The translations under genes were made by a program, and so were the position numbers. Below, one piece after another: positions 629 through 45,695 of a stretch of 60,729 nucleotides of DNA. Every line of letters begins with the position of its first letter. Within the stretch, counting starts at the first letter, position 1. Source of the stretch: a virus. The notes below the pieces were generated by a model. That model was not told the origin of the DNA. It ran no database searches and was given only the letters and a program-made list of their open reading frames with translations. Location: IMG/VR virus record IMGVR_UViG_3300036760_000452, positions 1-60,729 of that record; one strand, given 5' to 3'.

Positions 629-1680
629 TCCTTGAGCCGCGGAAGTACCATAGCAAAGCCCACGTCAGCTTTCAAGTGCTTTTCTTCGACCGGGGTTTCA
701 TCCGGGTGTTCCTCGTAGTACCGGCGCACGGCCTCTTCGCCGGCGCGCTTGTTCTTGGCCTCGAGCTCGTCGCGCGGCGCCCCGGCGGCGCCCACGGGCG
801 GCCCGTCCTCGGAGAGCGCAGCGCGCTGGAGCTTCTCGATCCGATCCCGCCCCTTGTGGACGAACAGGTTCTCGAACCCGAGGTACGCAGTGCCCTTCTC
901 CGAGCCGTTGAACAGCGGGTCGCGCAGCGCGCCCTCGACCGCCAAGCACAGCCCGCGGACCTTGGACGCCATGTCTCCTGGCTCTTCCCGGAGTCTGGTT
1001 ATGAGACGCCTTCGGCGCTCCTCCGTCCACTGCGCCCGGACCTGGTTCGTCTTCAGGCGCCAGAAGTCGAAAACGAGGTGCGCACCCTGAGACTCGTTCA
1101 GGCTCCTTGCGGAAGCCGGTACGTCGGTCGCTCTGACGATCGCAGGCTGAACGACCGCTACCCCCGTCCCGACGTCAGTCGGGACAGATCCGTTGTTCGT
1201 TGTTTCCGTTGTTGTAGTAGGAGTAGAAGAAGGAGACGGAGAAGAAGGGGACCTACGGCCGTAGGTCCTTCGAGCGCTATCGATGGTATCCTTGCTACCG
1301 TCCTTGTCTTGAGCCTTTTTGCGAGGAACATTAGGGTTTCTCGCACTCATGGCTCCAAAAGCTCCGCGCTTTTCCCTCAAGGTTTCATCACGAACCTGAC
1401 GCCTGCTGAAGATAATTCCTTCGGAATTTTTTGAAAAAACGTTGTGATTTTCCAGCTCTGCCAGTAGCCTCCCGACGATCGTTTTGGAGCTTCCGACCAT
1501 CTTCGCTAGCTCCTCCGTGGAGATGCCGTGGCCATTCGTGGCGAGGTGCCCGTAGGGATCGCCCTGGTGTGTGAAGCACAGGATGTCGGCCCACAGACCG
1601 CGGGCGGCGAGGGACGACGCGCGCAGGCCGATGTCCTCGAGCCAGTCCCCGGGGTAAAACTGGAAGGACGGGCGCTTCAC
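625..1680 (-). CDS. Replication initiation protein (winged-helix, DnaD-like)
   Basis: The product has 351 residues. The N-terminus (SFQFYPGDWLEDIGLRASSL, residues 5-24) is the hallmark of phage replication initiators with a winged-helix domain (DUF1376-like proteins), ending in a recognition-helix-like SSKTIVGRLLAELENHNVF. Residues about 140-180 are a Ser/Thr/Pro-rich linker. The C-terminal part (VFDFWRLKTNQVRAQWTEER onward) is helical and DnaD-like. Such proteins bind the phage origin and recruit the host helicase. It starts with a GTG overlapping the stop of the preceding winged-helix gene (1677..1979), so the two are probably co-translated. Confidence 0.65.
   Translation of the reverse strand: MKRPSFQFYPGDWLEDIGLRASSLAARGLWADILCFTHQGDPYGHLATNGHGISTEELAKMVGSSKTIVGRLLAELENHNVFSKNSEGIIFSRRQVRDETLREKRGAFGAMSARNPNVPRKKAQDKDGSKDTIDSARRTYGRRSPSSPSPSSTPTTTTETTNNGSVPTDVGTGVAVVQPAIVRATDVPASARSLNESQGAHLVFDFWRLKTNQVRAQWTEERRRRLITRLREEPGDMASKVRGLCLAVEGALRDPLFNGSEKGTAYLGFENLFVHKGRDRIEKLQRAALSEDGPPVGAAGAPRDELEAKNKRAGEEAVRRYYEEHPDETPVEEKHLKADVGFAMVLPRLKE
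647..675 (-). promoter_or_regulatory. Sigma70-like promoter with internal operator (AGC-N8-GCT)
   Basis: On the minus strand TTGAAA (670..675) and TATGGT (647..652) are separated by 17 bases. The spacer contains the shared element, which reads AGCCCACGTCAGCT on the plus strand at 657..670. The promoter lies inside the 3' end of the initiator gene and would fire into the gene at 116..628 and then across the circle junction into the exported-protein gene. Six other promoters carry the same element in the same place. Confidence 0.65.
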
Positions 1681-1979
1681 TCGGCCACCTTCGCGAGCCC
1701 AGCGCGCTCGAGAGATGCCAGTGCGGCTGGTAGGGCGTCATCGCGCAGCGTGAGCGCCCAGGCGAGTTCTTTGGGCCCAGACGCCTTTACGACGCCGTCT
1801 CCGCCCTCCGTCGCGTTGTCCGTGGCGAGCAGCAGCAGGCCGACGTAGGCCATGCGCGCCTCGAGCGGCAGGTCTCGGAAGTGAAAGTCCTGGATCAGGC
1901 TCCGCGGCAGCTTCACCCACGGTGGCCGACGGTCTCCGTAGTGCTGGAACCTTTCGAACCCTTGCAGGAGGATCTTCAT
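1677..1979 (-). CDS. Small winged-helix replication protein
   Basis: The product has 100 residues. Its N-terminus contains FQHYGDRRPPWVKLPRSLIQ, a motif frequent at the start of phage replication-initiation proteins, followed by helices consistent with a winged helix (DALPAALASLERAGLAKVAE at the end). It may be the DNA-binding half of a split initiator with the next gene. The ATG has no recognisable Shine-Dalgarno sequence. Instead a perfect 7-bp hairpin ends 3 bases upstream (1983..1999) and a larger structured region lies beyond it, suggesting that translation is controlled by RNA structure. Confidence 0.55.
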   Translation of the reverse strand: MKILLQGFERFQHYGDRRPPWVKLPRSLIQDFHFRDLPLEARMAYVGLLLLATDNATEGGDGVVKASGPKELAWALTLRDDALPAALASLERAGLAKVAE

Positions 1980-1982
1980 GGT

Positions 1983-2104
1983 GCTAGCTCTCAGCTAGCG
2001 TCCCCAGAGAAGGCCCGACGAGGCGGCAGCCGGTGGTGAGCCGGCGTTTCCTCGGGCGTGGACCGAGGGGAGGCACCTCCCCGCCGGGCCATCTCTGGGG
2101 ACGC
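1983..2104 (-). other. Highly structured non-coding segment (RNA element or origin candidate)
   Basis: Two arms at 1998..2017 and 2085..2104 are complementary over 20 positions with one mismatch (at 2011/2091). The enclosed 67 bases can form three more hairpins on the minus strand: GGGGAG/CTCCCC with a 4-base loop, CTCGG/CCGAG, and GCCGG/CCGGC. Together they form a closed multibranch. A further perfect hairpin, GCTAGCT-3-AGCTAGC (1983..1999), abuts the start codon of the winged-helix gene. No gene of its own is convincing here. It could be a cis-regulatory RNA, a processed ncRNA, or a double-strand or single-strand origin next to the initiator genes. Confidence 0.6.
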
Positions 2105-2110
2105 CGGCTC

Positions 2111-3175
2111 CTACGCTCCTGGCTCCGCCCCAGGCCAGTTGCACGCCGGACAGGTCCCGAACACGTCGAAATCCTCTCCTCCGCACCGCGGGCACTTCGT
2201 CGGCTTCTCTGCCGGTGGTGTCTCCTTGCGCTTCTCGATGAGCGCACCGGTGAGGTTTGGATGCGCAGGCCTTGCGGTCCTGCGCTCTTTCTGCGGCTCC
2301 GAACCTTGCGCAACGGTGGGTGGCGAGGTCGCCTCCGGCGTCCCGTTGGGCGCCTCGGCACCCCCCTCGTCTTTGGGTTTCTGTGGCTGTGGCTCCACGA
2401 CCACAGCGGCGGTCTCGATGACCTCGGATTTGGCTGGAACGCCCAGGTTGCCCAGGATCGGGTCAGAGACGGCAGGGCCGGGTCCTACGAAGCGCTGCCC
2501 CCGTAGAGGCCCCGTGGCGGCCTGCGTCTCGGCGGAGGGGCCATCCTGCGGGCCAACGCCTCCCGCCAGGACGTCCTCGGCGATCGGCACGCCGCCGAGA
2601 GGCTCCGGAAAGTGGAACCTGGCCATGTCGCCGACCGCGCGCCACTCGAGCATGTTCGTCGGCCGGGTCTGCCACGGCCCGTCCTTCTTCCACAGCCCAG
2701 CCTTCTTCGCGTCGTCGATCGAGAACGTGCGGACGAAGCTCTGCGCGTAACCCTTGCGCTGGGCGACGCACACCCCGCGCGCAGTTCCTTCGTCGACGCT
2801 GCCCTCGCAGTAGCTCTTGAAGGTCCCCGGCACAACGAGGCCGCTGTTCTGGATGAAGCCGATCGCTGCCCAGCCGCGCCACGAGAGCACGCCGTTCACC
2901 ACGACGCAGGCCTGCAGGCCGCCCATGAGCCCCATCCCGCGCTCGAGCCCTGCCTGGATGGCGAGCGCCGCCTGCCCTTCGTTCATCCCGCGCGGCGCCA
3001 CGTTGTTCTTGACCGCGGTGCGCGCGAAGTTCATGAGGTCCTGGAGGTTCTCGAGCTCGATCCCGCGCCTACCGAGCGCGACCGACTGCGCGCGCGTGGC
3101 GACCGCCTTCACCTCGGACGGGCTCTGGACCACGATCTCCTGCGGCGTCTCTGTCTGCGGCTGTTCTTCCGACAT
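2111..3175 (-). CDS. recT: RecT-family single-strand annealing recombinase
   Basis: The product has 354 residues. Residues about 40-200 match the RecT fold: the N-terminal MNFARTAVKNNVAPRGMNEG, the central VLSWRGWAAIGFIQNSG, and the typical SIDDAKKAGL..GPW..RPTNMLEWRAVGDMARFHFPE segment. RecT proteins coat and anneal single-stranded DNA made by a partner exonuclease. The C-terminal 150 residues are a Pro-rich tail ending in a CPRC/CPAC zinc ribbon, an unusual addition that may bind a partner or SSB. It directly follows the RecE-like nuclease and overlaps its stop region, forming an exonuclease/annealase pair. Confidence 0.85.
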   Translation of the reverse strand: MSEEQPQTETPQEIVVQSPSEVKAVATRAQSVALGRRGIELENLQDLMNFARTAVKNNVAPRGMNEGQAALAIQAGLERGMGLMGGLQACVVVNGVLSWRGWAAIGFIQNSGLVVPGTFKSYCEGSVDEGTARGVCVAQRKGYAQSFVRTFSIDDAKKAGLWKKDGPWQTRPTNMLEWRAVGDMARFHFPEPLGGVPIAEDVLAGGVGPQDGPSAETQAATGPLRGQRFVGPGPAVSDPILGNLGVPAKSEVIETAAVVVEPQPQKPKDEGGAEAPNGTPEATSPPTVAQGSEPQKERRTARPAHPNLTGALIEKRKETPPAEKPTKCPRCGGEDFDVFGTCPACNWPGAEPGA

Positions 3176-3176
3176 T

Positions 3177-4064
3177 TCACCCCTCCTCTACGAACGTCCG
3201 CGTCACCCATCCCGGCAGGCCGAGGAGCTCTATCCCATCGCCCCACCCCGGCCATGAACCTGTCCGCTGCGCTTCCGCCCACGTCCGCATCGCCTTGCGG
3301 TACTGGATCCGACCCCACTCGAGCGGCTCGGAATCCGCCTCGAACACGCGGACGCAGTGCGGCGGGCTGACCTCGGCCACGATCCACACGAAGCGCCGGA
3401 ACGCCTCCCCGACCGTCGGGGCGACTGCGTCCAGGCCGTCCGAGTAGAACGCCGCCTGCAGCCAGTATCCGAGCTGGTGCGCCTGCCGCTCGAACGCGAA
3501 GCGCGTCGCGACGTTTCCGAACGACTTCAGGTCGGCGACGATCGGCCAGCTCTCCATGTGCGTGTAGCGGTCAGCGCGCCCCTTGCAGCGCACCTTGAAC
3601 TCCGGGTCGTCCCAGACGAACGTCATCTCGTTGACGCCCCTGTTCGTGAGCAGCTCGTTCACGGTCGCGTTGGCGCGCGCTGAGGCGCGGATCGCGTCGA
3701 TCGCCTCCATCTGCTCCTCGTCGAGGATCATCCTGCCCTTCGCGAGCTCCTCGTACTGCGCCCACGCCTTCTTGCCTTCCTTGAAGCGGCGGTCGACTTT
3801 CGGTGCCACGACCGTCTCCGCGTCGAGACGGTGCGGCTCGAAGATCGCCAGGTGGAGCGCGAGACCGAAGCTCTTCGCGTCGGATTCCTTCTCGTGCGTG
3901 AGCGCGTAGCGCGCGTGCGCCGGCGTCGCGCCGCCGTGAAAGTGCTTCAGCTTCGAGTAGTTGAGAAACGGCAGCATGGCGTACTCGGGGAACGGCACGC
4001 CCGAGTAGACGCCAGGCGGAATCTCAGCGGGGGGTATCCCCTTGATGCTCGCCCACGTTTGCAT
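3177..4064 (-). CDS. RecE-like PD-(D/E)XK exonuclease
   Basis: The product has 295 residues. It shows the nuclease signature of exodeoxyribonuclease VIII/RecE-type proteins: FLNYSKLKHF near the start, GLALHLAIFEP (residues 67-77), CKGRADRY (160-167), and catalytic VADLKSFGN with D178 and K180, followed by QAHQLGYWLQAAFYSDGL. It should resect double-stranded ends 5' to 3' to supply the RecT next door with single strands. The ATG is preceded by a good GGAGGTGGTGA site. The pair is probably central to phage recombination or concatemer processing. Confidence 0.75.
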   Translation of the reverse strand: MQTWASIKGIPPAEIPPGVYSGVPFPEYAMLPFLNYSKLKHFHGGATPAHARYALTHEKESDAKSFGLALHLAIFEPHRLDAETVVAPKVDRRFKEGKKAWAQYEELAKGRMILDEEQMEAIDAIRASARANATVNELLTNRGVNEMTFVWDDPEFKVRCKGRADRYTHMESWPIVADLKSFGNVATRFAFERQAHQLGYWLQAAFYSDGLDAVAPTVGEAFRRFVWIVAEVSPPHCVRVFEADSEPLEWGRIQYRKAMRTWAEAQRTGSWPGWGDGIELLGLPGWVTRTFVEEG

Positions 4065-4191
4065 TCACCACCTCCTGATCCGGCCAGTTCCACGGCTCTT
4101 CCGCCTCTGTCTTGCGCCGCTCTCCGCGCCCGATCGCCTTCATGTTGAGAGCCTCGTCCTCGGGCAGGAAAAGGTTCGGCAGCAGCCGCAC
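4024..4191 (-). CDS. Small hypothetical protein, 55 residues
   Basis: This short frame begins at a GTG that shares a base with the TAG stop of the previous zinc-motif gene and runs 41 bases into the exonuclease gene. The product starts VRLLPNLFLPEDEALNMKAI and ends in a polar tail. The coupled start supports it; the long overlap with the next gene weakens it. No function is recognisable. Confidence 0.35.
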   Translation of the reverse strand: MRLLPNLFLPEDEALNMKAIGRGERRKTEAEEPWNWPDQEVVNANVGEHQGDTPR

Positions 4192-4427
4192 TAGACCTTC
4201 GTCTCGTCGAGCTTGTGGTCGCCACACCAGTCGTTTTCGAACACGGCCGGATAGCCGCTCATCGTCGGCGCGTGGCGGCGACATCGTCCGAGGTTCAGCC
4301 CGGTCCGGTTCGGTGGGGCTCCAGTAGTCGGCGCCGCGCCCGGGACCTTCACCACGAACCACATGCACGAGGCGCAGCGCATCCCTACGGAGCGGTGCGC
4401 CCACGGATCAGCAGCCATCTCAGGCAT
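4191..4427 (-). CDS. Small zinc-binding phage protein
   Basis: The product has 78 residues with CASCMWF, GRCRRHAPT and DWCGDHK, a C..C - C...P - WCG arrangement common in uncharacterised small phage proteins that bind zinc. The ATG overlaps the end of the upstream gene (4420..4659) by a few bases. It lies in the recombination operon, so it may be an accessory of nucleic-acid metabolism, but this is inference. Confidence 0.6.
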   Translation of the reverse strand: MPEMAADPWAHRSVGMRCASCMWFVVKVPGAAPTTGAPPNRTGLNLGRCRRHAPTMSGYPAVFENDWCGDHKLDETKV

Positions 4428-4659
4428 TCGGTCCTCCAATGGCGCGGTTCGCGAGCCGTACCTGGCCGCGCCGCGCGATGAGTTCGGTCGCCTCACGCAG
4501 CGGCACGAAGAAGCGCCGGCGCCCGTGCCACTTCCGGACCTCGACCCCGTGCTTGTCGAGCCGGATCCAGCAGAGGAAGCGCGCGCCGTCACCGCCGCCC
4601 AGGTCCACGCCTCTCACGAGGATCGTCTTGCCCGTGCCCTGCTTCTCGGGAGTAGCCAC
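4420..4659 (-). CDS. Hypothetical basic protein, 79 residues
   Basis: The product is rich in Arg and Lys (CWIRLDKHGVEVRKWHGRRR) with predicted beta strands at its centre and no known domain. It starts with GTG immediately after the stop of the NlpC/P60 gene and overlaps the next gene. The basic surface suggests nucleic-acid binding, but the sequence does not settle it. Confidence 0.55.
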   Translation of the reverse strand: MATPEKQGTGKTILVRGVDLGGGDGARFLCWIRLDKHGVEVRKWHGRRRFFVPLREATELIARRGQVRLANRAIGGPNA

Positions 4660-4660
4660 C

Positions 4661-5188
4661 TCAGTCCTCGAGCCCGACGTATCGAGCGATGCGCGTGTAG
4701 GGCACGCGCCGGAAGACCTCGTTGTCGGTCTCCCATATCGCGCGTCCGTGCTCCTTCACGTTGCCCGACGAGCAGTGGATCACCGACTTGTCGCCGGTGA
4801 CGATTCCGACGTGGCCGATCGTCGGCCCCCGCTTGTCGCCTCGCTCCGCGAGCCCTGTGCGCTGAGCGTAGTTGTACGACGGGTAGACGATCAGGTCGCC
4901 CGGCCGCGCAGCTTCGACTGGGGGAAAAAACAGGCCGGCCGGATGGCGGGTGTCGGCCACGATCGCGTCGGTGTTCATCCAGCGGTGGCCGATGGCCGCC
5001 TGCAGAAAGGCCAGCGTCGGCTGGTAGCGAACGATGCCGAGCGCCCAGCACACGAACCCGGAGCAGTCGCACGCGCCGCTCAGGTCGTACGGGCTGAGCG
5101 CATCGTGCGGGGCGCCGGCCCCGAGGCGGTACGTGCCGATCAGCGGCTTCGCGGAACGGGCGCGTGCGAGGAGCTCAGCGCGCAGCAC
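4661..5188 (-). CDS. NlpC/P60-type cysteine peptidase (endolysin candidate)
   Basis: The product has 175 residues with the papain-like NlpC/P60 signature: DCSGFVCWALG with catalytic C42, then GDLIVYP, GHVGIVTG with H126, and a third polar residue around VIHCSSG (H138). These enzymes cut peptide bonds in peptidoglycan. There is no signal peptide, so a holin or similar would be needed for access to the wall. It sits in the DNA-metabolism operon, about 10 kb on the circle from the holin candidate at 55205..55576, so lysis genes are dispersed. A virion-assembly or host-remodelling role is also possible. Confidence 0.7.
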   Translation of the reverse strand: MLRAELLARARSAKPLIGTYRLGAGAPHDALSPYDLSGACDCSGFVCWALGIVRYQPTLAFLQAAIGHRWMNTDAIVADTRHPAGLFFPPVEAARPGDLIVYPSYNYAQRTGLAERGDKRGPTIGHVGIVTGDKSVIHCSSGNVKEHGRAIWETDNEVFRRVPYTRIARYVGLED

Positions 5189-5375
5189 GGGAGCCTTTTC
5201 CAGCCAGGCGCCGCTTCATTTCCTTCTTCCGCTCTGCCACGGTCAGGTGCTCCCACGGGCTCGACGCGGCGTGCGACGCGGCTTGGCTCCGCTCTTCTGG
5301 CGTCATCTTCGCGTAGCGCTTTCCGACCAGGATCGACGCCGCCTTGCTCGCCTGGGCGTTCGTTGTTTTCTTCAA
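5175..5375 (-). CDS. Small helical basic protein, 66 residues
   Basis: The start is taken as TTG at 5375 because GGAGGAGAG lies directly before it. The product (KKTTNAQASKAASILVGKRY, then MTPEERSQAASHAA) is helical and basic, with a pattern similar to small DNA-binding or histone-like phage proteins, but no named family is certain. It is the first gene behind the promoter at 5499..5528 and overlaps the peptidase gene by 14 bases. Confidence 0.55.
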   Translation of the reverse strand: MKKTTNAQASKAASILVGKRYAKMTPEERSQAASHAASSPWEHLTVAERKKEMKRRLAGKGSRAAR

Positions 5376-5498: not shown

Positions 5499-5528
5499 AA
5501 GATACTAATGCTCGCGTAGGCTTGTCAA
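5499..5528 (-). promoter_or_regulatory. Sigma70-like promoter with internal operator
   Basis: On the minus strand TTGACA (5523..5528) and TATCTT (5499..5504) are spaced by 18 bases. The spacer starts with AGCCTACGCGAGCA (5509..5522), a variant of the shared AGC-N8-GCW element. It lies in the gap of about 155 bases between the genes at 5175..5375 and 5532..6143 and should drive the peptidase-recombination segment. The remainder of the gap (5376..5498) shows no gene. Confidence 0.7.
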
Positions 5529-7781: not shown

Positions 7782-8206
7782 GGATTCACCTTTGTCCTTT
7801 TCCAGAGGCGCTGGCGCTCGCGCCACTCGTAGTCCGTTAGGCCGTTCCTGCCCGGATAGCGCATTAGCGCCTGAAACTCGATGCAAGCTCTTGCTGGACG
7901 CGCCTTCACAATCAGGTAGGGTGCGAGCTGCTTCAGCAGTGTCGCGGCTTGGCGACTCCACACGGTCCATACCCACGCAGGTTTGCGCAGATAACCCACC
8001 TTCCTCGAGTTGACCTGTCCAAGGCCAGAGACGCGTCGCGCGTAGTCCAGCGGAGAGCGATCAGTCATGGAGACCACGATCATGACTCGGTAGCAGACGC
8101 CACGTTTGCACTGTTTCGCGTTCGAGTTAGAAATGGCCCGCGTGACGCCAACGTATGCTTCCCCGTCGATCAGTCCGGCCAGATAGGCTCGTTCTGTAGG
8201 TTTCAT
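7778..8206 (-). CDS. Free-standing LAGLIDADG homing endonuclease
   Basis: The product has 142 residues and one LAGLIDGEAYVGV motif (residues 9-21), so it should act as a homodimer. SISNS-like and WTVWSRQAATLLKQL segments and the C-terminal WRERQRLWKRTK agree with small single-motif members. It is not inside an intron or intein. It is precisely inserted in the operon: its ATG overlaps the stop of the small exported gene (ATGA) and its TGA overlaps the start of the DHH gene (GTGA). Confidence 0.8.
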   Translation of the reverse strand: MKPTERAYLAGLIDGEAYVGVTRAISNSNAKQCKRGVCYRVMIVVSMTDRSPLDYARRVSGLGQVNSRKVGYLRKPAWVWTVWSRQAATLLKQLAPYLIVKARPARACIEFQALMRYPGRNGLTDYEWRERQRLWKRTKVNP

Positions 8207-8412
8207 TCCTCCCCGCACGTGATCGCGTTCGTCGCGCGGTTCACGACGAGGTCGTCGCACAGCACGTCGCCCTCGTACGTGAAGACCCAGCCCCGCAGCG
8301 TCCCCGAGCCGTTGATCTCCGCGATCGGCACGCCAGGGCGCCCCGCGTCGTACGCCACGACCGACCCGCCCGCGAGCGCGAGCACCACCACCACCAGTAC
8401 CAGTTTTCTCAC
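8203..8412 (-). CDS. Small exported or membrane-anchored protein, 69 residues
   Basis: The start is taken as the GTG at 8412, which follows GGAGG by 6 bases. The N-terminus VVRKLVLVVVVLALAGGSVV is one hydrophobic helix (signal peptide or anchor), followed by about 45 polar residues with two cysteines. It is the first gene behind the promoter at 8433..8462 and is coupled to the homing endonuclease. Function unknown; exposure to the periplasm or outside is inferred. Confidence 0.6.
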   Translation of the reverse strand: MRKLVLVVVVLALAGGSVVAYDAGRPGVPIAEINGSGTLRGWVFTYEGDVLCDDLVVNRATNAITCGEE

Positions 8413-8432: not shown

Positions 8433-8462
8433 AACATAAGCCCACGATGGCTAGGATGTCAA
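8433..8462 (-). promoter_or_regulatory. Sigma70-like promoter with palindromic operator
   Basis: On the minus strand TTGACA (8457..8462) and TATGTT (8433..8438) are 18 bases apart. Between them lies AGCCCACGATGGCT (8439..8452, plus strand), a quasi-palindrome with AGCC/GGCT arms. This is one of the best matches to consensus among the promoters of the shared family. It would drive the exported protein, the homing endonuclease and the DHH gene. Confidence 0.75.
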
Positions 8463-10595: not shown

Positions 10596-10859
10596 TCACC
10601 CGCGGGGCGCCCGAGCGCGAAGAGGATCGTCCGCCAGCCTCAACCGCTTCGTCTCCCGATCAAACGACGCCCTGCACGCGTCCTCCCACCGAACAGCCTC
10701 CCACTGCTCTCGCGCCCGTCGACGACCCTCCACAGCAGGATCGCTCGGTGGCCCATCCGCCACCCGCGGAAACACAGGGCCCCTGGCCACCCACCCAGTC
10801 ACCACCCCAACCAGCAGCAGCAACAGCCCCCGCACAGCGTCCCACCCACCCAAGTCCAT
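10596..10859 (-). CDS. Small membrane protein, 87 residues, first gene of the leftward operon
   Basis: The ATG at 10859 gives an N-terminal hydrophobic helix (VRGLLLLLVGVVTGWVARGP) and a charged cytoplasmic-type tail. The promoter at 10867..10895 would start RNA at about 10860, so the message could be leaderless; an internal start is also possible. Early phage genes with one membrane helix are often inhibitors or exclusion proteins, but nothing specific identifies this one. Confidence 0.5.
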   Translation of the reverse strand: MDLGGWDAVRGLLLLLVGVVTGWVARGPVFPRVADGPPSDPAVEGRRRAREQWEAVRWEDACRASFDRETKRLRLADDPLRARAPRG

Positions 10860-10866
10860 GACCCGC

Positions 10867-10895
10867 AATATACGCCACCTTGCCCACGATGGCAA
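10867..10895 (-). promoter_or_regulatory. Leftward promoter with palindromic operator
   Basis: On the minus strand TTGCCA (10890..10895) and TATATT (10867..10872) are 17 bases apart. The spacer and -35 hold TTGCCCACGATGGCAA (10880..10895, plus strand), whose arms TTGCC/GGCAA are a perfect inverted repeat around CACGAT. It is the operator variant with TGC/GCA ends. It would start the whole leftward early operon. Confidence 0.7.
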
Positions 10896-11266: not shown

Positions 11267-11301
11267 GTTACCTTTGGTAACGAAGTGCACCATTTGGTGC
11301 A
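11267..11301. promoter_or_regulatory. Tandem palindromic operators
   Basis: GTTACCTTTGGTAAC (11267..11281) has perfect 6-base arms. TGCACCATTTGGTGCA (11286..11301) has perfect 7-base arms. They share an ACC..TTTGGT core and are 4 bases apart, with centres about one and a half to two helical turns apart, as for cooperatively bound dimers. A related GTTAC-N5-GTAAC site occurs at 48190..48204 before the scaffold gene. Confidence 0.55.
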
Positions 11302-11440: not shown

Positions 11441-11794
11441 ATGATCGAACGAGCAGAGCCGACGCGGCCCGGGTGTCCTGCCATCCCGGCAGGCTACGGG
11501 ACGAACCCGCAGGATTGCGCGTGCGGCGCGTGCGAGACGGTCTACAGCGACGAACGGCAAGCGGCCGAGGCCGAGGCCTCACTGCGGCGGGTGAGCACGG
11601 CGACGGCCTACGACTACGAGGCGCAGTGCTGGGTCAGGGGCCCGGCGGCCGAGCGGCTCATCCGGCAACAGGCGAGGGACACGCTCGCCGTCATCGACCG
11701 GCCGAGCTACCGTCGCATGATGGGCTACACCGACGCCGAGGCCGTTCGGATCAAAACGCGGGCCCTAGAGCTCGCAGGGGAGAACAAGTCATGA
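11441..11794 (+). CDS. Hypothetical protein, first gene of the rightward arm
   Basis: The start is the ATG at 11441 behind GGAGGC; upstream in-frame sequence is part of the control region. The product has 117 residues, with CACGACETVYSDERQAAEAE (a short cysteine pair) and a helical C-terminus (YRRMMGYTDAEAVRIKTRAL). No family is recognised. Its stop overlaps the ATG of the next gene. Confidence 0.55.
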   Translation: MIERAEPTRPGCPAIPAGYGTNPQDCACGACETVYSDERQAAEAEASLRRVSTATAYDYEAQCWVRGPAAERLIRQQARDTLAVIDRPSYRRMMGYTDAEAVRIKTRALELAGENKS

Positions 11795-12123
11795 GCAGCA
11801 GTCCGGTTACGTCCGTTCGAGACGCATCGGTCAGCGTCGTCTTCGTCTACCGCCCGAACAGCCCCAGGAGGCTGGTGTGCGAGGCCGAGGTCGTCTTCTC
11901 GGACGGCCCGCTGGGGGGCATGAAGCTGGTCGGCTTCTCGCTGTGGCGCTCGCCCGAGGGCGAGGTCTACGTCACCTTCCCGTCCCGTGCGGTCGGGGCC
12001 TCGACCGATCGGCGCTTCTTCGACTACCTCCGATCGGTCGAGGGGAACGGAGCGGACGCGAAGCGGGTCAAGGCGTGGATCGTCGACGCCTACAGGCGCG
12101 AGCGCGAGCCCGAGCAGGCGTAG
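11791..12123 (+). CDS. SpoVG-like protein (weak)
   Basis: The product has 110 residues. The order of strands and motifs (VVFVYRPNSPRRLVCEAEVV, GMKLVGFSLWRSPEGEVYVT, FPSRAV, then a final VKAWIVDAYRRE helix) resembles SpoVG-family proteins, which are small DNA/RNA-binding regulators with a swapped beta sheet and a basic C-terminal helix. It is the second gene of the rightward operon, where a regulator would be expected. The resemblance is by pattern only. Confidence 0.45.
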   Translation: MSSSPVTSVRDASVSVVFVYRPNSPRRLVCEAEVVFSDGPLGGMKLVGFSLWRSPEGEVYVTFPSRAVGASTDRRFFDYLRSVEGNGADAKRVKAWIVDAYRREREPEQA

Positions 12124-13888: not shown

Positions 13889-14085
13889 GCGGCAACCTGA
13901 CGGCTCGAGAGCGGCGCCTACTGGCTGCTCTTCGGTTCATCGAGGCGTGCCCAGCGATTTACGCCCGGCGCGGCCCCGACTACGTGGTGGGCGCGATGGC
14001 CGAAGTAGCCCGGGAGACGGTGCAGCGCGAGACGCGCGACGCCTCGCCCCTGCGCGCGGTTGACAGCGAGCCCACGAGAGCATAG
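13885..14085 (+). CDS. Hypothetical helical protein, 66 residues
   Basis: GTG start overlapping the preceding stop. The product (TARERRLLAALRFIEACPAI, then VGAMAEVARETVQRE) is two helices with no further motif. The promoter at 14060..14088 begins within its 3' end. Confidence 0.5.
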   Translation: MSGNLTARERRLLAALRFIEACPAIYARRGPDYVVGAMAEVARETVQRETRDASPLRAVDSEPTRA

Positions 14086-14088
14086 CTT
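14060..14088 (+). promoter_or_regulatory. Rightward promoter with internal operator
   Basis: TTGACA (14060..14065) and TAGCTT (14083..14088) are 17 bases apart, with AGCCCACGAGAGCA (14069..14082) between them. The -35 is perfect. The element and its position match the leftward promoters, so both arms should answer to the same regulator. It would re-start transcription inside the rightward operon. Confidence 0.7.
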
Positions 14089-14111
14089 AGATGCTGAGGC
14101 GAGAGGTGATT

Positions 14112-14345
14112 GTGGGAAAACCGAGAGCGACGAAAGCCGAGATCGCGGCGGCGATGATGGCGCGGGCCGAGCGCTACGCCAAGGTGCGCGCGGTCGTGGC
14201 CACCGGGGTATGCCCGCTGTGCGGGGGCAAGCTCAAGCGGAACCTGTCCTTGACCGGCTGGTGGCAGTGCGAGCAGCTCGGCTCGCCAGTCTTCCGCAAG
14301 GACCCGGACAAGGCGTCGTGCACATGGCAGGGGTTCACTGAATGA
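14112..14345 (+). CDS. Zinc-ribbon phage protein, 77 residues
   Basis: The GTG at 14112 is chosen because an AGAGGTGAT site precedes it and because the promoter start point (about 14095) excludes the ATG at 14091. The product contains VCPLCGGKLKR, WWQCEQLG, FRKDPDKASCTWQGF, a conserved C..C-C-C pattern in small phage proteins. Function unknown. Confidence 0.6.
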   Translation: MGKPRATKAEIAAAMMARAERYAKVRAVVATGVCPLCGGKLKRNLSLTGWWQCEQLGSPVFRKDPDKASCTWQGFTE

Positions 14346-17658: not shown

Positions 17659-17813
17659 TCCCGCCCGACACCGGCCTCTACCGAACGGACGTGGTCTGGC
17701 ATCTCGTGATCTCCGGACACCACGCCTGCTGGCTCGTGGGCTTGGCAATCGGGTGCTTCGTCGCCTGGCACCTAGCGCGGATCCTGAACGAGCCGAAGCG
17801 GCTTGACGATTAG
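17655..17813 (+). CDS. Small membrane protein, 52 residues
   Basis: A 53-codon frame overlapping the preceding stop as ATGA. The product has one hydrophobic segment (ACWLVGLAIGCFVAWHLA) after a polar N-terminus and ends in a short basic tail. The -35 of the promoter at 17803..17831 lies in its last codons. Function unknown. Confidence 0.55.
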   Translation: MIPPDTGLYRTDVVWHLVISGHHACWLVGLAIGCFVAWHLARILNEPKRLDD

Positions 17814-17831
17814 CCCACGATAGCTTATATT
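17803..17831 (+). promoter_or_regulatory. Rightward promoter with internal operator (best consensus)
   Basis: TTGACG (17803..17808) and TATATT (17826..17831) are 17 bases apart, with AGCCCACGATAGCT (17812..17825) filling the spacer and touching the -10. Transcription would start near 17838, 12 bases before the ATG at 17850. This is the clearest member of the shared promoter family because the gap contains nothing else. Confidence 0.8.
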
Positions 17832-17849: not shown

Positions 17850-18275
17850 ATGGCGCAGCGGAGGTTGATGCTCGGCGAGGTCTACCGCGTCGTACGCGTG
17901 ACGGATGACGGAGCGTTGCTCAAGCAGCAGCTACCGGGCGCGGCCAGCGCCCCCGACTTCTGGGCGTTCCAGGGCGGAGCCGAGGTCTCCGTCTCCCCGC
18001 CTCTGTGCGAGAGCCAGGAGGTCGCCACCTTCAACCTGTCGCAACTCGTGCGCGAGATCAATCCCGAGGGCTTGGGCGTCGTCCCCGTCATCGCTCGCCA
18101 GCTCGGCCTCCCCGAGCCGCTCGTGGTCTTCATCCGCGACGATGGCTGGAGCGTCGGTGCTGCGGGGGACAGAGCAGAGCGAGTCGCGCTCGAGTACTGG
18201 GGCCATCGCTACGTGACGTTCGCTCGACGCGGGGAGGGCTGGAAGCTGCGGCCCATCATGGAGTATCACAAGTGA
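17850..18275 (+). CDS. Hypothetical protein, 141 residues
   Basis: First gene behind the promoter at 17803..17831, with GGGGGTGG before the ATG. The product appears alpha/beta (LMLGEVYRVVRVTDDGALLK, VPVIARQLGLPEPLVVFIRD, RYVTFARRGEGWKL) without catalytic residues I can name. Position right behind a controlled promoter makes it a good candidate for the regulator itself or for an anti-host factor, but no DNA-binding motif is evident. Confidence 0.5.
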   Translation: MAQRRLMLGEVYRVVRVTDDGALLKQQLPGAASAPDFWAFQGGAEVSVSPPLCESQEVATFNLSQLVREINPEGLGVVPVIARQLGLPEPLVVFIRDDGWSVGAAGDRAERVALEYWGHRYVTFARRGEGWKLRPIMEYHK

Positions 18276-19190: not shown

Positions 19191-19460
19191 GTGGGCCGGC
19201 GCCGCATCCTGAAACCGATACGGCCGTGGCGCCCAGGCCTCTGCTCCGTCTGCCACCGTGCTCCGCGGCCGACGAGGAAGGAGGAGGAGCGAGGCGTCAG
19301 CCCAGGGCTGCGGAAGGGTATGTGCCTCGCCTGCTACCAGCTCTTGCGGCGCCGCCGCATCCGCGAGAAGAACGCGCCGCCCAAGGTGCTGACATTCACC
19401 CCTCCTCCGGCTCCGAAGCCTGCAGGCCCTCCGCTCAAGCCGTGGGATCGGTTCCGATGA
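19191..19460 (+). CDS. Basic zinc-knuckle protein, 89 residues
   Basis: GTG start directly after the preceding TAA. The product has LCSVCHRAPRPTRK and MCLACYQLLRRRRIREKN, then a Pro-rich tail. The strong basic patch next to the second C..C suggests nucleic-acid binding. Its TGA overlaps the ATG of the HNH gene. Confidence 0.5.
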   Translation: MGRRRILKPIRPWRPGLCSVCHRAPRPTRKEEERGVSPGLRKGMCLACYQLLRRRRIREKNAPPKVLTFTPPPAPKPAGPPLKPWDRFR

Positions 19461-33115: not shown

Positions 33116-33145
33116 TTGCTTAGCCCACGTATGCTGTGCTAGGAT
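33116..33145 (+). promoter_or_regulatory. Rightward promoter with internal operator inside the late region
   Basis: TTGCTT (33116..33121) and TAGGAT (33140..33145) are 18 bases apart, with AGCCCACGTATGCT (33122..33135) between. It begins 1 base after the start codon of the giant gene on the other strand and drives only the plus-strand gene at 33164. It is the sole member of the shared promoter family that points against its surroundings. Confidence 0.75.
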
Positions 33146-33163: not shown

Positions 33164-33598
33164 TTGGCACAACAGCCTACAGCAGTTCGAGAGGTTTCCT
33201 TCCTGCGTCAGGGAGATCAGGTCGTCTGGATCACGACGGAGAACGGGAAGACGACGGTCAGGGCGGAGACGAGCCCGCTTCAGGCTCCACAGCACAGGAG
33301 TAGCGACTTCTTGGCCTACACCAGAGAGCTCATGGACGATCCTGCCCACGAGATGCGCCTCGCAATCCCACGCCGGAAACCGCTCGCTCTGCAGCAGGCC
33401 CCCGTGGTCGAAGCGACGCCGCTCCCCCCGCGCACTACGGTCGTCACTCACGAGGCGCTGCGGCCAGGGAAGGTTCAGAAGATAGTCCAGAGCGGGCCGC
33501 CCTTCGGCTTCGAGGAGCTCGTCGCGTTCCTGCTCGTGGCGGCGTTCGTCATCGGGGGACTGACCGCCTTTCTCCGGCGCACTACTCGGCCGGCGTAG
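33164..33598 (+). CDS. Moron-like tail-anchored membrane protein
   Basis: The product has 144 residues and starts with TTG, 6 bases after GGAGG. A polar N-terminal part (EVSFLRQGDQVVWITTENGK) is followed by a membrane segment near the C-terminus (ELVAFLLVAAFVIGGLTAFL, residues about 118-137) and a basic end, so the bulk should be cytoplasmic. It is the only plus-strand gene in 38 kb of minus-strand late genes, has its own operator-controlled promoter, and converges with the next gene by 17 bases. Such genes often serve in exclusion or host control. Confidence 0.75.
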   Translation: MAQQPTAVREVSFLRQGDQVVWITTENGKTTVRAETSPLQAPQHRSSDFLAYTRELMDDPAHEMRLAIPRRKPLALQQAPVVEATPLPPRTTVVTHEALRPGKVQKIVQSGPPFGFEELVAFLLVAAFVIGGLTAFLRRTTRPA

Positions 33599-40915: not shown

Positions 40916-40937
40916 CCCCCACCTCCCTGGGTGTGGG

Positions 40938-41744
40938 TTAGGCCGGTGTCGGGACGCCTTCCTGCTTCGCCGCGATCTGCTTCAGCAGATGGTCGCGGTA
41001 CTCGAGGTCGTTCCGTAGGAGCTTGCCCATCTCGGCCTTCGTGAGCGTGATCCCCGCGGACTCGGCCAGATCGAAGAGCTCGCCGGGCGCGCGCTCGGCG
41101 TCGTTCACCTCGGGCGCAGCGTCGGAGTCGGAGGCCGCGATCTGCGCGCCGACCTTCGGACGCTCCACGACCGTCCCGCCTCCGAGCACACGCCGGATCG
41201 CATCGTCGCTCATCGCGGGCGCCTGCTTCGCTCGGTTCTCGAGGTGCTGCGCCGCCCAGAGGACCTTGTGCTCCGAGGACGACTGCGGAGCCGGGATTCC
41301 CTTCTGGTCCCACTTCTTCCGACGCTCGAGCTCCTGCTGCAGGATCGTGCGTGCGTAGTCGTCTTGCGAGCGCTCGTACTTCGGCCGGCCGACCGCCATG
41401 GCCTGAGCAACCTCGTCCGTGCTGTCGACGATCCCGAGGCCCTGGTTGATGAGGTCCTCGCGATTGGACTCGAGCCAGTCGCAGAACTCGACCACGTCGA
41501 AGAGCTTCACGCGACCTCCGGTCGGCGTGTCCTGGATCCGGTCCTTGACGACCATCGTGCCCGGGATCTTCCTGCCTGTGGCTGGATCGTGCACGCTCTC
41601 GTAGCGGTACGGCATGCCGGGGCCAACCTCGGCCACTTGGTCGTGGGGCGGCATGACGAACAACTCGCCGTCGTACATGACCGGCTTGGCCTCGTCGCCC
41701 GGCCAGACGAGGATGAACTCTTGAAGGCGGTGGAACTTTTTCAC
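40938..41744 (-). CDS. Hypothetical virion-operon protein, 268 residues
   Basis: GTG start at 41744 behind AGGAGAGGA. The N-terminus is beta-rich (KKFHRLQEFILVWPGDEAKP), the middle helical (RSQDDYARTILQQELERRKK), the end acidic and helical. No named family. Position between tail-fibre-like and adaptor genes suggests a structural or assembly role. Confidence 0.5.
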   Translation of the reverse strand: MKKFHRLQEFILVWPGDEAKPVMYDGELFVMPPHDQVAEVGPGMPYRYESVHDPATGRKIPGTMVVKDRIQDTPTGGRVKLFDVVEFCDWLESNREDLINQGLGIVDSTDEVAQAMAVGRPKYERSQDDYARTILQQELERRKKWDQKGIPAPQSSSEHKVLWAAQHLENRAKQAPAMSDDAIRRVLGGGTVVERPKVGAQIAASDSDAAPEVNDAERAPGELFDLAESAGITLTKAEMGKLLRNDLEYRDHLLKQIAAKQEGVPTPA

Positions 41745-41775
41745 GGTCCTCTCCTTGCTGGGTGCGGCCCAGCGT

Positions 41776-42471
41776 TTATACAGTGACGCCTCGTCCTCGT
41801 GCCGGGGCCCATGCCCCACTCCTGCGCGCTCGCTTGGCGCCGTAAGCCATGAGGCGCTGGTACTCGGCCCAGTCCCCGTCGCTCACGGACTCCTCGATCT
41901 TACGCAGGATCCACGGTTCGATCCACCTCTTCACGTACTCGATCTGCGCCTGATGGTCGGCGCGCATCTTCTCCTCGCGCTTCTTCCGGAGCTCGATGTT
42001 CCGGTTGAATCGCGCGACGGTGAGCCGCTCGCGCTCCCACTTCCGTCGGCAGAAGCCGTACACGCCCCAGTCCCACGGCAGCACTTCGCCTGGACCGTTC
42101 GGCGCGAGCGGGTCGCCCTCGAAGAACTTGTCGAGGTAGTTCGGTGCGGGATGCTTCGCGCCCTGCGGCATCTCGACGTAGAAGCCGGCGCGCGAGTAGC
42201 GAGGGTCCGGGTAGTGCCGGCCGATGCCGACGTGGGCGACGAGGCGCACGCCGGAGTGGCCCGGTACCCTCCACGCCTGCACGCGCCACATGACGATCGC
42301 CCCGGCGTCGAACTCGTGCAGCGCCGCGGTGACGGCCGGGTCAGCAGCGAAGTTCGGCGGCGCGACGCACGTGTAGTGATCCTCGCCGACCTGCTCCCAG
42401 GCCTGCGGGAGCGACTCGGAAACCGCTGCGCGGCGCTCGTCGACGACCTTCAGCCAGTCGCGGTAGCTCAT
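41776..42471 (-). CDS. Hypothetical conserved phage protein, 231 residues
   Basis: The start is the ATG at 42471 (MSYRDWLKVVDERRAAVSES). It has a central Trp/Tyr-rich region (NYLDKFFEGDPLAPNGPGEV, GVYGFCRRKWERERLTVARF) and a long charged helix. I have no function; similar proteins of unknown role occur in podovirus structural operons. It overlaps the end of the fibre-like gene by 4 bases. Confidence 0.5.
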   Translation of the reverse strand: MSYRDWLKVVDERRAAVSESLPQAWEQVGEDHYTCVAPPNFAADPAVTAALHEFDAGAIVMWRVQAWRVPGHSGVRLVAHVGIGRHYPDPRYSRAGFYVEMPQGAKHPAPNYLDKFFEGDPLAPNGPGEVLPWDWGVYGFCRRKWERERLTVARFNRNIELRKKREEKMRADHQAQIEYVKRWIEPWILRKIEESVSDGDWAEYQRLMAYGAKRARRSGAWAPARGRGVTV

Positions 42472-44393
42472 GGTGTGCAAACCGGCGTGCCGGCAAACGC
42501 AGTCGTGATCCACACCGCGCCACTGCCGCCCGTGGCCGCCACTACGGTCACGCTGTCCCCGATGCCTGTGGCTACCCCGCCAATCACGAACGAAGTCCCA
42601 CAGGTGGTGTTTCCGAACATGATCGACTCCCCAGCGGCAGGAGCCAGCGTGATGTCCTGAGCGACGGTCGCTACGACGAGATACTGCGTCCCAATAGTGG
42701 GGTCGTTCGGCAGGTTGATGATCGAGCCGTCCGCATCGCCGGTGTTCGTATACAGCTCGCCGCTTTCCGTGATCGCTGGAGCCTTCGTAGTGGTGTTCGC
42801 TTCGACTGCCTGCCCAGGCAAAAAATAGCCCAGTCCGGCACCACCATTAGACACGCGAAGCTGTCCCAGCGCGTTTCGCACGAGGCCTACGTCGGCTCCT
42901 GTCGTACTCGGATCTCCAGAGGACCAGTTCACCTGAGCGTCGCTCTTCATCCGCTGAGCTGCGGTGTCCAAGTTCCACACTGCCGAGTTGGCTACGGACG
43001 CTGCGAGGTTCGAGGCACCGTTCAGCCACAAGCCCGTGTCGGGATCCGCCACAAAGCTATAGCTCGGGTCACCAACCGTGCCGCTCGCAACGCGGATACT
43101 TCCATTGCCGGATCCGCCGTCTGTCACCTTCACGATCCCCGCGGAAACGCGCGCGAGGCCGGTGTCCATGGTGCCAGCGTCCGCCGTCGAGGCGCTCGTC
43201 CAGCCCCACTGCCCAGTGTTGAACGTATACGCGGCGTAGGCCGAAGCATTCAAGCCGATGACGAATCGCACTAAGCCGCCGGTCTTGACGCGAAGCCCCT
43301 GGTTGGACCCTTCGATCGTATTCACATCGAAGTTGACACCACCAGTCGTGACGCTGTTCGCTACCAGCGCCCCAGTGCCAGCACCCCCATCCGTCACCTT
43401 CACAATGCCTGCGGCGGAGCGGGCGAGGCCGGCGTCTGAAGCCGCCCCAACCGCCCCCGAAGAGAAGGCGTACTGCTGTGCCGACGCGATCTGCGTTCCC
43501 AGGACCCCGAGGATCTGCGGCGACGACGTCAGCGCCGTCGCACTCCACGTCCCGACCGAGGCACCGGCCACGGCGAACCCGATGCCGGGCGCGGCCGAGT
43601 ACAGGCCGGTCGTGGTGGCCCCGGTGAAGCCGACGCTCGGAGCAGCGGCCGTGCCAGCGGGGACGATGAACGGCACCGTCGAGGTGAGGAGCGAATCGGT
43701 AAGCGTTAGGTCTACCTCGGCAGCGGCCCCCACGTCGAACTCCGTCTTGTCCTTCGAGAGCACGACACGATTCGAGGAAGTCGCCGCGTCGATCACCTCG
43801 AAGTCGATGACGGGGCTGCCGAGCGTGAAGGAGTTGGCCCTGACTCTGGTTGAGGTTGTTCCGTTCTGCCCCCACAGGATTGACAGCGTCGGCTGCACGT
43901 TGACGTAGGACGAACCGCCGCCCTGCAGGAAAGAGCTTGTGGCGTTGATCGTGGCTACGTTCGTTCCGCCGGAAGAGATGCCCAGGCTGTTCTCGCCGAT
44001 ACGGTAGAGGCCGGTATCGTTGCTCGTGTCGGTGCTGAACGTGAAGCTCGGCGCACCGACGGTTCCCGATGGCCCCAGGACCGGCAGGGTCGACGTGATC
44101 GCGGTCGTGGAGATGCTAAGCCGGTTCGCTCCAGACGTCCTGACGACCACGACCGCCGTCGCCGAAGAGCAGACCCCACTGGTCGCGTCCCCGGTGAAGC
44201 TGTACGGAGGCGCAAGGCAGTTGTCTGCGGCAGGCCCCAAAATCGGCGCCGTGATCGCCCCGCCCGTGAAGCTCGTCCCGCCTCCTGAGCCAGGGCCCGG
44301 TGGGTAGGCGGAGCCCTGCGCCAGCACCGTCACTGGAGTCGCCGTGAACGCGACCATCAGCCACAGCAGCAATCGCTTCCGGTCGAACCGCAT
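42468..44393 (-). CDS. Fibre-like repeat protein with Sec-type signal peptide, 641 residues
   Basis: The start is the ATG at 44393 after GGAGGTCGCG. The N-terminus RLLLWLMVAFTATPVTVLAQ is a signal peptide with LA-Q cleavage. The body has two repeat types: GTxGxPSxxFxxDTxTGLY units (near residues 105, 200, 485) and units of DxGLxRxxxGxxxVxDGGxGxG form. Both are frequent in phage tail fibres. A fibre made for export is odd; alternatives are a host-surface or secreted adhesin-like protein. Confidence 0.6.
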   Translation of the reverse strand: MRFDRKRLLLWLMVAFTATPVTVLAQGSAYPPGPGSGGGTSFTGGAITAPILGPAADNCLAPPYSFTGDATSGVCSSATAVVVVRTSGANRLSISTTAITSTLPVLGPSGTVGAPSFTFSTDTSNDTGLYRIGENSLGISSGGTNVATINATSSFLQGGGSSYVNVQPTLSILWGQNGTTSTRVRANSFTLGSPVIDFEVIDAATSSNRVVLSKDKTEFDVGAAAEVDLTLTDSLLTSTVPFIVPAGTAAAPSVGFTGATTTGLYSAAPGIGFAVAGASVGTWSATALTSSPQILGVLGTQIASAQQYAFSSGAVGAASDAGLARSAAGIVKVTDGGAGTGALVANSVTTGGVNFDVNTIEGSNQGLRVKTGGLVRFVIGLNASAYAAYTFNTGQWGWTSASTADAGTMDTGLARVSAGIVKVTDGGSGNGSIRVASGTVGDPSYSFVADPDTGLWLNGASNLAASVANSAVWNLDTAAQRMKSDAQVNWSSGDPSTTGADVGLVRNALGQLRVSNGGAGLGYFLPGQAVEANTTTKAPAITESGELYTNTGDADGSIINLPNDPTIGTQYLVVATVAQDITLAPAAGESIMFGNTTCGTSFVIGGVATGIGDSVTVVAATGGSGAVWITTAFAGTPVCTP

Positions 44394-44408
44394 CGCGACC
44401 TCCTCGAG

Positions 44409-44456
44409 AAGAGAAACACTCGCGGGGCGCCGGTCTGGATGGCGGCACCCCGCGAG
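44409..44456 (-). terminator. Intrinsic terminator
   Basis: On the minus strand CTCGCGGGG (44448..44456) pairs perfectly with CCCCGCGAG (44419..44427), with a 20-base loop that can extend the stem, followed by TGTTTCTCTT. This is a good Rho-independent terminator between the 111-residue virion gene and the fibre-like gene, so the head genes upstream would be read more than the tail genes downstream. Confidence 0.7.
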
Positions 44457-44464
44457 CAACGATA

Positions 44465-44800
44465 CTACGTCTGCAGCGGGATGCGGCGACCGTGCGCCGT
44501 GATCGCGTTGACGTAGCACACCTGGCTCGCGGCCGAGCCCACGATGTAGAGCGCCGCCAGATCCATCTGGAAGCTGCCCTGGTGATAGGGCCCGAAGCGC
44601 TTCGAAGCCCCCGCGTTGAGCTGCATCGTCGCGGCGACACCGTTGAGGTCCACCGTGACGGGCCCCAGGTAGACCTTCCCGCTGTTGTCCGGATCGGCGA
44701 CGAACTCGATCTCGAAGAGGTCCTGGCGGGTGTAGCTGATGACCGTGCTCACCTTCGCCCTCGTCGTCCCGCCGTTGAACTGCCCTGCCTTCAGAGCCAT
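44465..44800 (-). CDS. Small virion protein, 111 residues
   Basis: Beta-rich product (SYTRQDLFEIEFVADPDNSG, KVYLGPVTVDLNGVAATMQL) located after the capsid and a secreted protein. Its composition fits a decoration or head-completion protein. No signal peptide. Assigned from context. Confidence 0.5.
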   Translation of the reverse strand: MALKAGQFNGGTTRAKVSTVISYTRQDLFEIEFVADPDNSGKVYLGPVTVDLNGVAATMQLNAGASKRFGPYHQGSFQMDLAALYIVGSAASQVCYVNAITAHGRRIPLQT

Positions 44801-44857
44801 GTGGCCCTCCTTTTGCCCCCGGTCGTCTCTTCACGCCGGAGGACTTGGCGCGCGTTG

Positions 44858-45586
44858 TCAGTCTACGGGAGCTCCAGAGAAAAGCTGAATGTACCTCACC
44901 TGGCCCCCGACCAAAATCTTGAGGTAGCCATCGGGGGTTGTGGGCTCTGTCCCTGGCGTTGCGTTCCAGACGCCGGGCTGAGTGCTGGTGAGGTTCATGA
45001 GCGCGGTCCAGCTCTTGCTGTTCGTCTGGACCTCGGACTTCTCGATCTTGAACGGCACGAAGTTGCCGGTCACCGTACCGGAGAACGCCGTGCGGAAGCG
45101 CAGCCCGACAACGTCGCCGGAAACGGTGCGGGTCCCGGCGTCGTCGGTGACGAGCTCGATCTGCTGGCCGCGGACGTCCCCGGCGATGTTGCCGGTCGTG
45201 CCCTTCAGAAAGGCGTCGACGTGCGCGCCGATGAGCGATCCCGTCCCGGTCAGGGCGAACGTGTCGTTGACCCTCGGGCTCACCTCGAACCCGATCACGT
45301 TGTTCGCCATGCTCGCGCCCTGGGCCGGCTTCGACTGGAAGCCGATCCAGGAGTTGGCCGTCCCGGTGTTCGTGATGCTGTTGATCCGGACGGTTTCCCC
45401 GGCCTGGTCGGTGTTGGTAGGCCCGGCGTTGAGCTGCAAGTGCGTGCCAACGGTCGGGGTGATCGGACCCGTGAACGACGTCGGCGGAGCGGTGTAGCCG
45501 GACGACTGCCCGTACTGCGCCATCGCGACCGACGCGAGCATGAGCAGGGCCAGCAGCGCCATCCCGTACTTCTCGTACTTCCTCAT
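44858..45586 (-). CDS. Exported beta-rich protein after the capsid gene, 242 residues
   Basis: N-terminus (K)YEKYGMALLALLMLASVAM is a clear signal peptide with cleavage at AMA-Q. The body is beta-rich with Gly-Thr turns (GTANSWIGFQSKPAQGASMA, GLRFRTAFSGTVTGNFVPFK), related in style to the fibre-like protein downstream. Placing an exported protein directly after the capsid gene is unusual. Its gene is preceded by an operator-like site and a hairpin. Confidence 0.6.
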   Translation of the reverse strand: MRKYEKYGMALLALLMLASVAMAQYGQSSGYTAPPTSFTGPITPTVGTHLQLNAGPTNTDQAGETVRINSITNTGTANSWIGFQSKPAQGASMANNVIGFEVSPRVNDTFALTGTGSLIGAHVDAFLKGTTGNIAGDVRGQQIELVTDDAGTRTVSGDVVGLRFRTAFSGTVTGNFVPFKIEKSEVQTNSKSWTALMNLTSTQPGVWNATPGTEPTTPDGYLKILVGGQVRYIQLFSGAPVD

Positions 45587-45626
45587 TTTCGGTCTCCCTT
45601 CGTGGTCTGCTGTCTCAAGGCCGGAT

Positions 45627-45666
45627 GCTGTCCGGGATGGACACCTTCTAGCCCACCCCGGACAGC
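45627..45666 (-). other. Hairpin between capsid and exported-protein genes
   Basis: GCTGTCCGGG and CCCGGACAGC pair perfectly (10 bp) around a 20-base loop in the 108-base gap after the capsid gene. There is no T-tract, so it may slow or protect the RNA rather than end it. Such structures often raise capsid mRNA stability. Confidence 0.45.
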
Positions 45667-45681
45667 TTTGCTAGGCTCCTA

Positions 45682-45695
45682 AGCCCACGCGGGCT
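45682..45695. promoter_or_regulatory. Operator-like element after the capsid gene
   Basis: AGCCCACGCGGGCT matches the shared AGC-N8-GCT element, with perfect AGCCC/GGGCT arms around ACGC. It overlaps the capsid stop codon. A -10-like TAGGAG follows on the minus strand but no good -35 is present, so promoter activity is doubtful. It may also work as a hairpin in RNA. Confidence 0.4.

What the first reader, a model, noticed from the sequence alone, without database searches (positions are those of the whole stretch)
647..45695. One operator element inside the -35/-10 spacer of seven promoters on both strands
Seen directly: AGC-N8-GCW with core CCACG occurs at 657, 5509, 8439, 10881, 14069, 17812 and 33122, each time between a TTGNNN and a TANNNT hexamer 17-18 bases apart. 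Hexamer pairs, in this order, are TTGAAA/TATGGT, TTGACA/TATCTT, TTGACA/TATGTT, TTGCCA/TATATT, TTGACA/TAGCTT, TTGACG/TATATT and TTGCTT/TAGGAT. An eighth copy at 45682 lacks a good -35. Four promoters point left and three right. Known: repressors that bind in the spacer block RNA polymerase (lambda-type and stoperator systems). Inference: one phage regulator controls both arms and the moron. No obvious repressor gene is visible, so the regulator may be of a new type or host-made.
Basis: partly seen in the sequence, partly recalled or inferred. Interest (0 to 1): 0.9.

Follow-up and report, generated by a model that had tools for sequence, protein, structure and literature searches.

The report
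Shared operator in phage promoter spacers
An uncultivated bacterial virus carries the same 14-letter protein-binding site inside practically every strong promoter it has, and a distant cousin does too, which points to one master switch, probably a repressor, whose gene has not been found.

Summary
Ranked by -35/-10 hexamers alone, the seven best promoters of this 60,602-bp phage all contain the element AGCCCACGNNRGCW. So do the eight best of a diverged relative, G004 (terminase 61% identical), when scored with a matrix made only from the window's sites. Lower-ranked promoters are at chance, with one marginal case in G004. Strong hits number 8 and 8, against about 0.6 and 0.5 expected; nine other compared phages have 0 or 1 each. 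A ninth window site lies at 58116.

The element starts 1 to 12 bases after the -35 start, in both orientations relative to transcription, and is normally not transcribed. That fits a simple blocking operator. It fits poorly with a sigma-factor element, an RNA signal, or an activator or Q-type site needing fixed geometry.

Best reading: operators of one repressor controlling the early promoters, including the replication and recombination genes. The repressor was not found. About 40 window proteins, including most early ones, gave no convincing repressor or integrase, so whether it is phage-made or host-made is open.

A second palindrome, GTTACCNNNGGTAAC, marks the head-operon promoter in four of the phages.

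New member of a known kind, of moderate interest.

The parts
647..675 (-). promoter TTGAAA-17-TATGGT; operator AGCTGACGTGGGCT at 657-670; -35 start 56 bp upstream of gene 116-619
5499..5528 (-). promoter TTGACA-18-TATCTT; operator AGCCTACGCGAGCA at 5509-5522; upstream of 5175-5375 (small basic protein), then the exonuclease/RecT genes
   Evidence: orthologous gene in G004 has the same arrangement
8433..8462 (-). promoter TTGACA-18-TATGTT; operator at 8439-8452; upstream of 8203-8412
10867..10895 (-). promoter TTGCCA-17-TATATT; operator TGCCCACGATGGCA at 10881-10894, overlapping the -35; an ATG lies about 7 bp after the -10 (probably leaderless)
14060..14088 (+). promoter TTGACA-17-TAGCTT; operator AGCCCACGAGAGCA at 14069-14082; upstream of 14106-14345
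17803..17831 (+). best-ranked promoter, TTGACG-17-TATATT; best-scoring operator AGCCCACGATAGCT at 17812-17825; upstream of 17850-18275
33116..33145 (+). promoter TTGCTT-18-TAGGAT (weak -35); operator AGCCCACGTATGCT at 33122-33135; followed by GGAGGTGG and a TTG-started ORF 33164-33598
45682..45695 (.). operator-like AGCCCACGCGGGCT between the capsid gene (45695-46960, -) and the gene at 44858-45586; no promoter recognised
48183..48211 (-). head-operon promoter TTGACC-17-CATCCT with a different palindrome, GTTACCGAAAGTAAC (48190-48204), in its spacer
   Evidence: GTTACCNNNGGTAAC-like sites upstream of the homologous gene in G014, G007 and G011
11267..11281 (.). perfect copy of the second palindrome, GTTACCTTTGGTAAC, in the divergent non-coding region; followed by palindrome TGCACCATTTGGTGCA at 11286-11301

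Best explanation
AGCCCACGNNRGCW is the operator of one sequence-specific DNA-binding protein that represses the phage's main sigma-70-type promoters by occupying the DNA between, or overlapping, the -35 and -10 hexamers, so that RNA polymerase cannot bind. The element forms an operator regulon over early genes on both strands: replication, recombination and small unknown genes, plus 33164-33598 and the operon starting at 58090. Shown by computation: the element's presence, its coincidence with promoters, and the same arrangement in a diverged relative. Inferred: that it binds a protein, that the effect is repression, and that the protein is phage-made (about 60:40 over host-made). The head operon carries a different palindrome and is probably controlled by a second factor.
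For: Promoters ranked by hexamers only: the top 7 in the window and top 8 in G004 carry the element, scored with a matrix trained on the other phage (each p 0.009 or less); nearly all later ranks are at chance. Circular-shift test: 6 of 8 and 5 of 8 strong sites lie in the top promoters, against at most 1 and 2 for any shift over 30 bp. Hits at score 14 or more: 8 and 8, against 0.6 and 0.5 expected; nine other compared phages have 0-1 each. The promoters are credible: in 13 of the promoters measured, -35 to the called start codon is 44-56 bp. The element starts 1 to 12 bases from the -35 start and occurs in both orientations relative to transcription, as a blocking operator allows. The orthologous promoter of the exo/RecT operon carries it in both phages. 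Consensus from 20 sites has C3, C7, G8 and G12 invariant and a partial dyad AGCCCAC/GTGGGCT.
Against: No repressor gene was found. No binding, footprint or transcript data exist. The host is unknown. Single sites are no more palindromic than random 30-mers. All clear window sites point the same way on the genome, which an ordinary operator does not need (about 1 in 100 by chance), although G004 is mixed. Only two genomes carry it.
Confidence: 0.75

Rival explanations
1. The element is the site of a host transcription factor, such as a stress repressor, and the phage has placed its promoters under host control. The two phages share the site because they share a host.
For: No repressor recognised in the window. 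No integrase or related prophage found, so a lysogeny repressor is not obviously needed. Shared early genes are few and mostly 30-60% identical, yet the site is nearly identical.
Against: Rare for a host factor to cover every strong promoter of a phage (general knowledge). The pattern scan of 84,980 genomes gave only two isolated hits, but that pattern matches none of the known sites, so this is very weak.
Confidence: 0.3
2. The element is a loading site for a Q-type antiterminator or an activator that acts on RNA polymerase at the promoter.
For: The lambdoid Q binding element also lies between -35 and -10 (PMC6606751).
Against: Position varies by 11 bp and orientation varies, whereas Q uses fixed direct repeats; most genes start 44-56 bp from the -35 start, leaving little room for a leader terminator; the hexamers are already near consensus.
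Confidence: 0.08
3. It is part of the host promoter consensus itself (a spacer element read by sigma or polymerase), not an operator.
For: Coincides with all the best promoters.
Against: Variable offset and both orientations relative to transcription; absent from the best promoters of related phages, including orthologous exo/RecT promoters.
Confidence: 0.05
4. Chance or composition artefact in a 67% GC genome.
For: Weaker matches (score 10-12) occur not far above chance.
Against: Cross-trained matrices, shift test and counts in two diverged phages.
Confidence: 0.01

Closest known systems
Cluster A mycobacteriophage (L5-type) operators and stoperators, and the related Rhodococcus cluster CA system
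   Same: A short repeated site, scattered over the genome in gaps, bound by one phage regulator; site sequence differs between related phages (PMC9283540, PMC5721134).
   Different: Those are 13-bp asymmetric sites, about 20 or more per genome, many away from promoters, aligned with transcription; here 9 sites, 8 of them in promoters, not aligned with transcription in the window. No repressor or integrase recognised.
Lambda cI, P1 C1 and phiC31 repressor operator regulons (from general knowledge)
   Same: One repressor with several operators overlapping -35/-10 regions of early promoters, scattered over the genome.
   Different: Here the repressor, immunity region and lysogeny genes have not been found, and the site sequence was not matched to any of these.
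Lambdoid Q binding element (PMC6606751)
   Same: Protein-binding element between -35 and -10.
   Different: Q elements are direct repeats at fixed positions with a promoter-proximal pause, at one late promoter; here a partial dyad at variable positions in most promoters.
Start-associated sequences of cluster K mycobacteriophages (PMC3203893)
   Same: 13-bp element repeated just upstream of many early genes, consensus with matching outer ends.
   Different: Start-associated sequences overlap the ribosome-binding site 3-7 bp from the start codon and are thought to act in translation; here the element lies upstream, in the promoter.

Membership tests
L5-type operator/stoperator system | Site orientation follows the direction of transcription | tested here: not met
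   All clear window sites are on the + strand while promoters point both ways; G004 mixed
L5-type operator/stoperator system | Many sites away from promoters (stoperators) | tested here: not met
   Only 45682 lies outside a promoter among the strong window sites
L5-type operator/stoperator system | Repressor with HTH plus stoperator domain | tested here: inconclusive
   About 40 window proteins scanned with Pfam and/or PHROGs; none found
Classical phage repressor operator regulon | Same site overlaps several promoters of the phage | tested here: met
Classical phage repressor operator regulon | Phage-encoded repressor that binds the site | tested here: inconclusive
   No candidate with convincing DNA-binding domain; only replication-initiator ORF 625-1680 has a winged-helix hit, E 0.0027
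Classical phage repressor operator regulon | Site sits so as to block polymerase | tested here: met
   Offsets 1-12 from the -35 start, within the 29-30 bp promoter or running at most 2 bp into the -10
Q binding element | Fixed direct repeats between -35 and -10 | tested here: not met
Q binding element | -10-like pause sequence just after the start site | tested here: inconclusive
   No consistent one seen by eye in the sequences
Start-associated sequence | Lies 3-7 bp upstream of the start codon over the RBS | tested here: not met

The most novel reading that the evidence does not exclude
A phage without recognisable lysogeny genes puts essentially all its strong promoters under one operator read by a protein of an undescribed DNA-binding family, or by a host protein that can silence an incoming phage as a whole.
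Probability: 0.25. Interest if true: 0.7.

Novelty: new member of a known kind. Interest (0 to 1): 0.5.

Why it matters
It gives a defined operator sequence, with 18 promoter instances in two phages, that can be used as bait to find the master regulator of a phage group known only from metagenomes. If the regulator is host-made, it would be a case of a host factor gating a whole phage programme. The sites also give trustworthy promoter and gene-start positions in otherwise unannotated genomes.

Tried and rejected
Regulator search by shared genes: the window and G004 share few early genes. 11791-12123 (SpoVG-like to my eye) occurs in four phages, but G014, with the closest copy, lacks the operator; Pfam, PDB sequence and fold searches did not confirm SpoVG. 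The Cys-rich protein 19191-19460 is found only in the window and G004, but the gene after it in the window is an HNH nuclease and its G004 setting differs, so it was not favoured. 17850-18275, behind the best operator, gave an unusable model (pLDDT 34).

Host search: capsid alignment against 84,980 genomes found nothing. The operator-promoter pattern gave two isolated hits, but the pattern was too strict to match any of our own sites. Viral scans with promoter patterns found one G004 promoter and isolated matches in contigs not followed up.

The 43263 and 54402 hits in G004 lie in coding sequence and were set aside.

The search pattern was mis-spaced by me and is to be ignored.

Full report
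What the window is. The window is a phage record of 60,729 bases whose ends repeat 127 bp, so a circle or terminally repeated genome of 60,602 bp, 66.7% GC. It encodes a terminase, major capsid protein, internal virion proteins, RecT-like annealing protein, exonuclease VIII-like protein, RusA-like resolvase, a replication-initiator-like protein and a GroES-like protein. No near relative is in the phage collection. Twelve metagenomic viral contigs encode its capsid protein at 60-71% identity, and no such capsid was found in 84,980 bacterial and archaeal genomes.

The observation. All eight reported places hold the element. The exact form AGCCCACGNNNGCW occurs six times in the genome, all on the + strand, and its reversed control never. 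The copy at 5509 is degenerate, the copies at 10881 and 657 overlap the -35, the copy at 45682 has no promoter, and a ninth copy lies at 58116.

Is it more than chance? I ranked all promoter-like sequences by their hexamers and spacing alone, ignoring the spacer's letters. The seven best in the window all contain the element. The decisive test is independent: in G004, a 56-kb relative whose terminase is 61% identical, the eight best promoters all contain it when scored with a matrix made only from the window's sites, and the reverse test works too. Nearly all promoters ranked below these score at chance; G004 rank 9 is marginal (p 0.013), and window rank 20 is an overlapping alternative for the 33122 site. 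With a matrix from 20 sites, each phage has 8 hits at 14 or more, against 0.6 and 0.5 expected; nine other compared phages have 0 or 1 each, at or near chance. Shifting the strong sites along the genome by more than 30 bp never puts more than 1 (window) or 2 (G004) of them into the top promoters, against 6 of 8 and 5 of 8 observed.

The promoters are real-looking. In 13 of the promoters measured, the -35 start is 44-56 bp upstream of the called start codon, often with a strong ribosome-binding site between. The promoter of the operon for a small basic protein followed by exonuclease and RecT is found at the same place in several relatives; in the window and G004 it carries the element, in G005 an 18-bp perfect palindrome of different sequence sits in its spacer.

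How it most likely works. The element starts anywhere from 1 to 12 bases after the first base of the -35 and can face either way relative to transcription. A roadblock tolerates that; a sigma element, a MerR-type activator or a Q loading site would not be expected to. Being upstream of the start site, it is normally not transcribed from its own promoter, so it is not a nut-like or riboswitch element for that promoter. The hexamers are close to consensus, so the promoters need no activator. The simplest mechanism is repression by occlusion. The binding, its sign and the protein are inferred, not shown.

Who binds it? I did not find out. About 40 window proteins, including most early ones, were scanned against Pfam and/or PHROGs; several small early ones and many late ones were not. 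No convincing repressor or integrase appeared. Genes shared only by the window and G004 are few and none is a persuasive repressor. A host-made regulator stays possible.

A second element. GTTACCNNNGGTAAC, exact or with one or two mismatches, lies in the promoter spacer of the head operon in the window (48190) and G014, and upstream of the homologous gene in G007 and G011; a perfect copy lies at 11267 in the divergent region. This suggests separate control of head genes.

Comparison with the known. It works like a phage repressor operator regulon. It does not meet the orientation and placement features of L5-type stoperators (PMC9283540; PMC5721134), the geometry of Q elements (PMC6606751) or the position of start-associated sequences (PMC3203893). 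I file it as a new member of a known kind, with the regulator unknown.

Noticed in passing
48183-48211 and 11267-11281: Second palindrome GTTACCNNNGGTAAC in the head-operon promoter and in the divergent region; conserved upstream of the same gene in G014, G007 and G011, half-conserved in G010 and G013.
   Followed up: partly
11286-11301: Near-perfect palindrome TGCACCATTTGGTGCA next to the 11267 copy, in a non-coding stretch between divergent genes; possible origin or control region.
   Followed up: no
48208-48531: Phage-encoded GroES-like protein (Pfam Cpn10, E 1.9e-15) just before the head genes.
   Followed up: no
L025 19297-19364 (G005): Back-to-back promoters of a relative each with a different palindrome in the spacer (TACGCTGGCGCCAGCGTA and CCACAATATGTTGTGG), suggesting that operator sequences differ between relatives while placement is kept.
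   Followed up: partly
L048 near 6654 and L050 near 17624 (G015 6654 and 57624): Another phage has a repeated palindrome ATTAGACCGCTCTAAT (one copy with a mismatch) in GTGACA/CATACT promoter spacers.
   Followed up: no
L024 9523-16023 (G004 49523-56023): The giant virion protein gene of G004 encodes a P-loop stretch (GAPGSGKTT) resembling zeta-toxin-like kinases near its N-terminal part (by eye).
   Followed up: no
10859-10895: Promoter 10867-10895 is followed within about 7 bases by an ATG, suggesting a leaderless mRNA for a small membrane protein.
   Followed up: no
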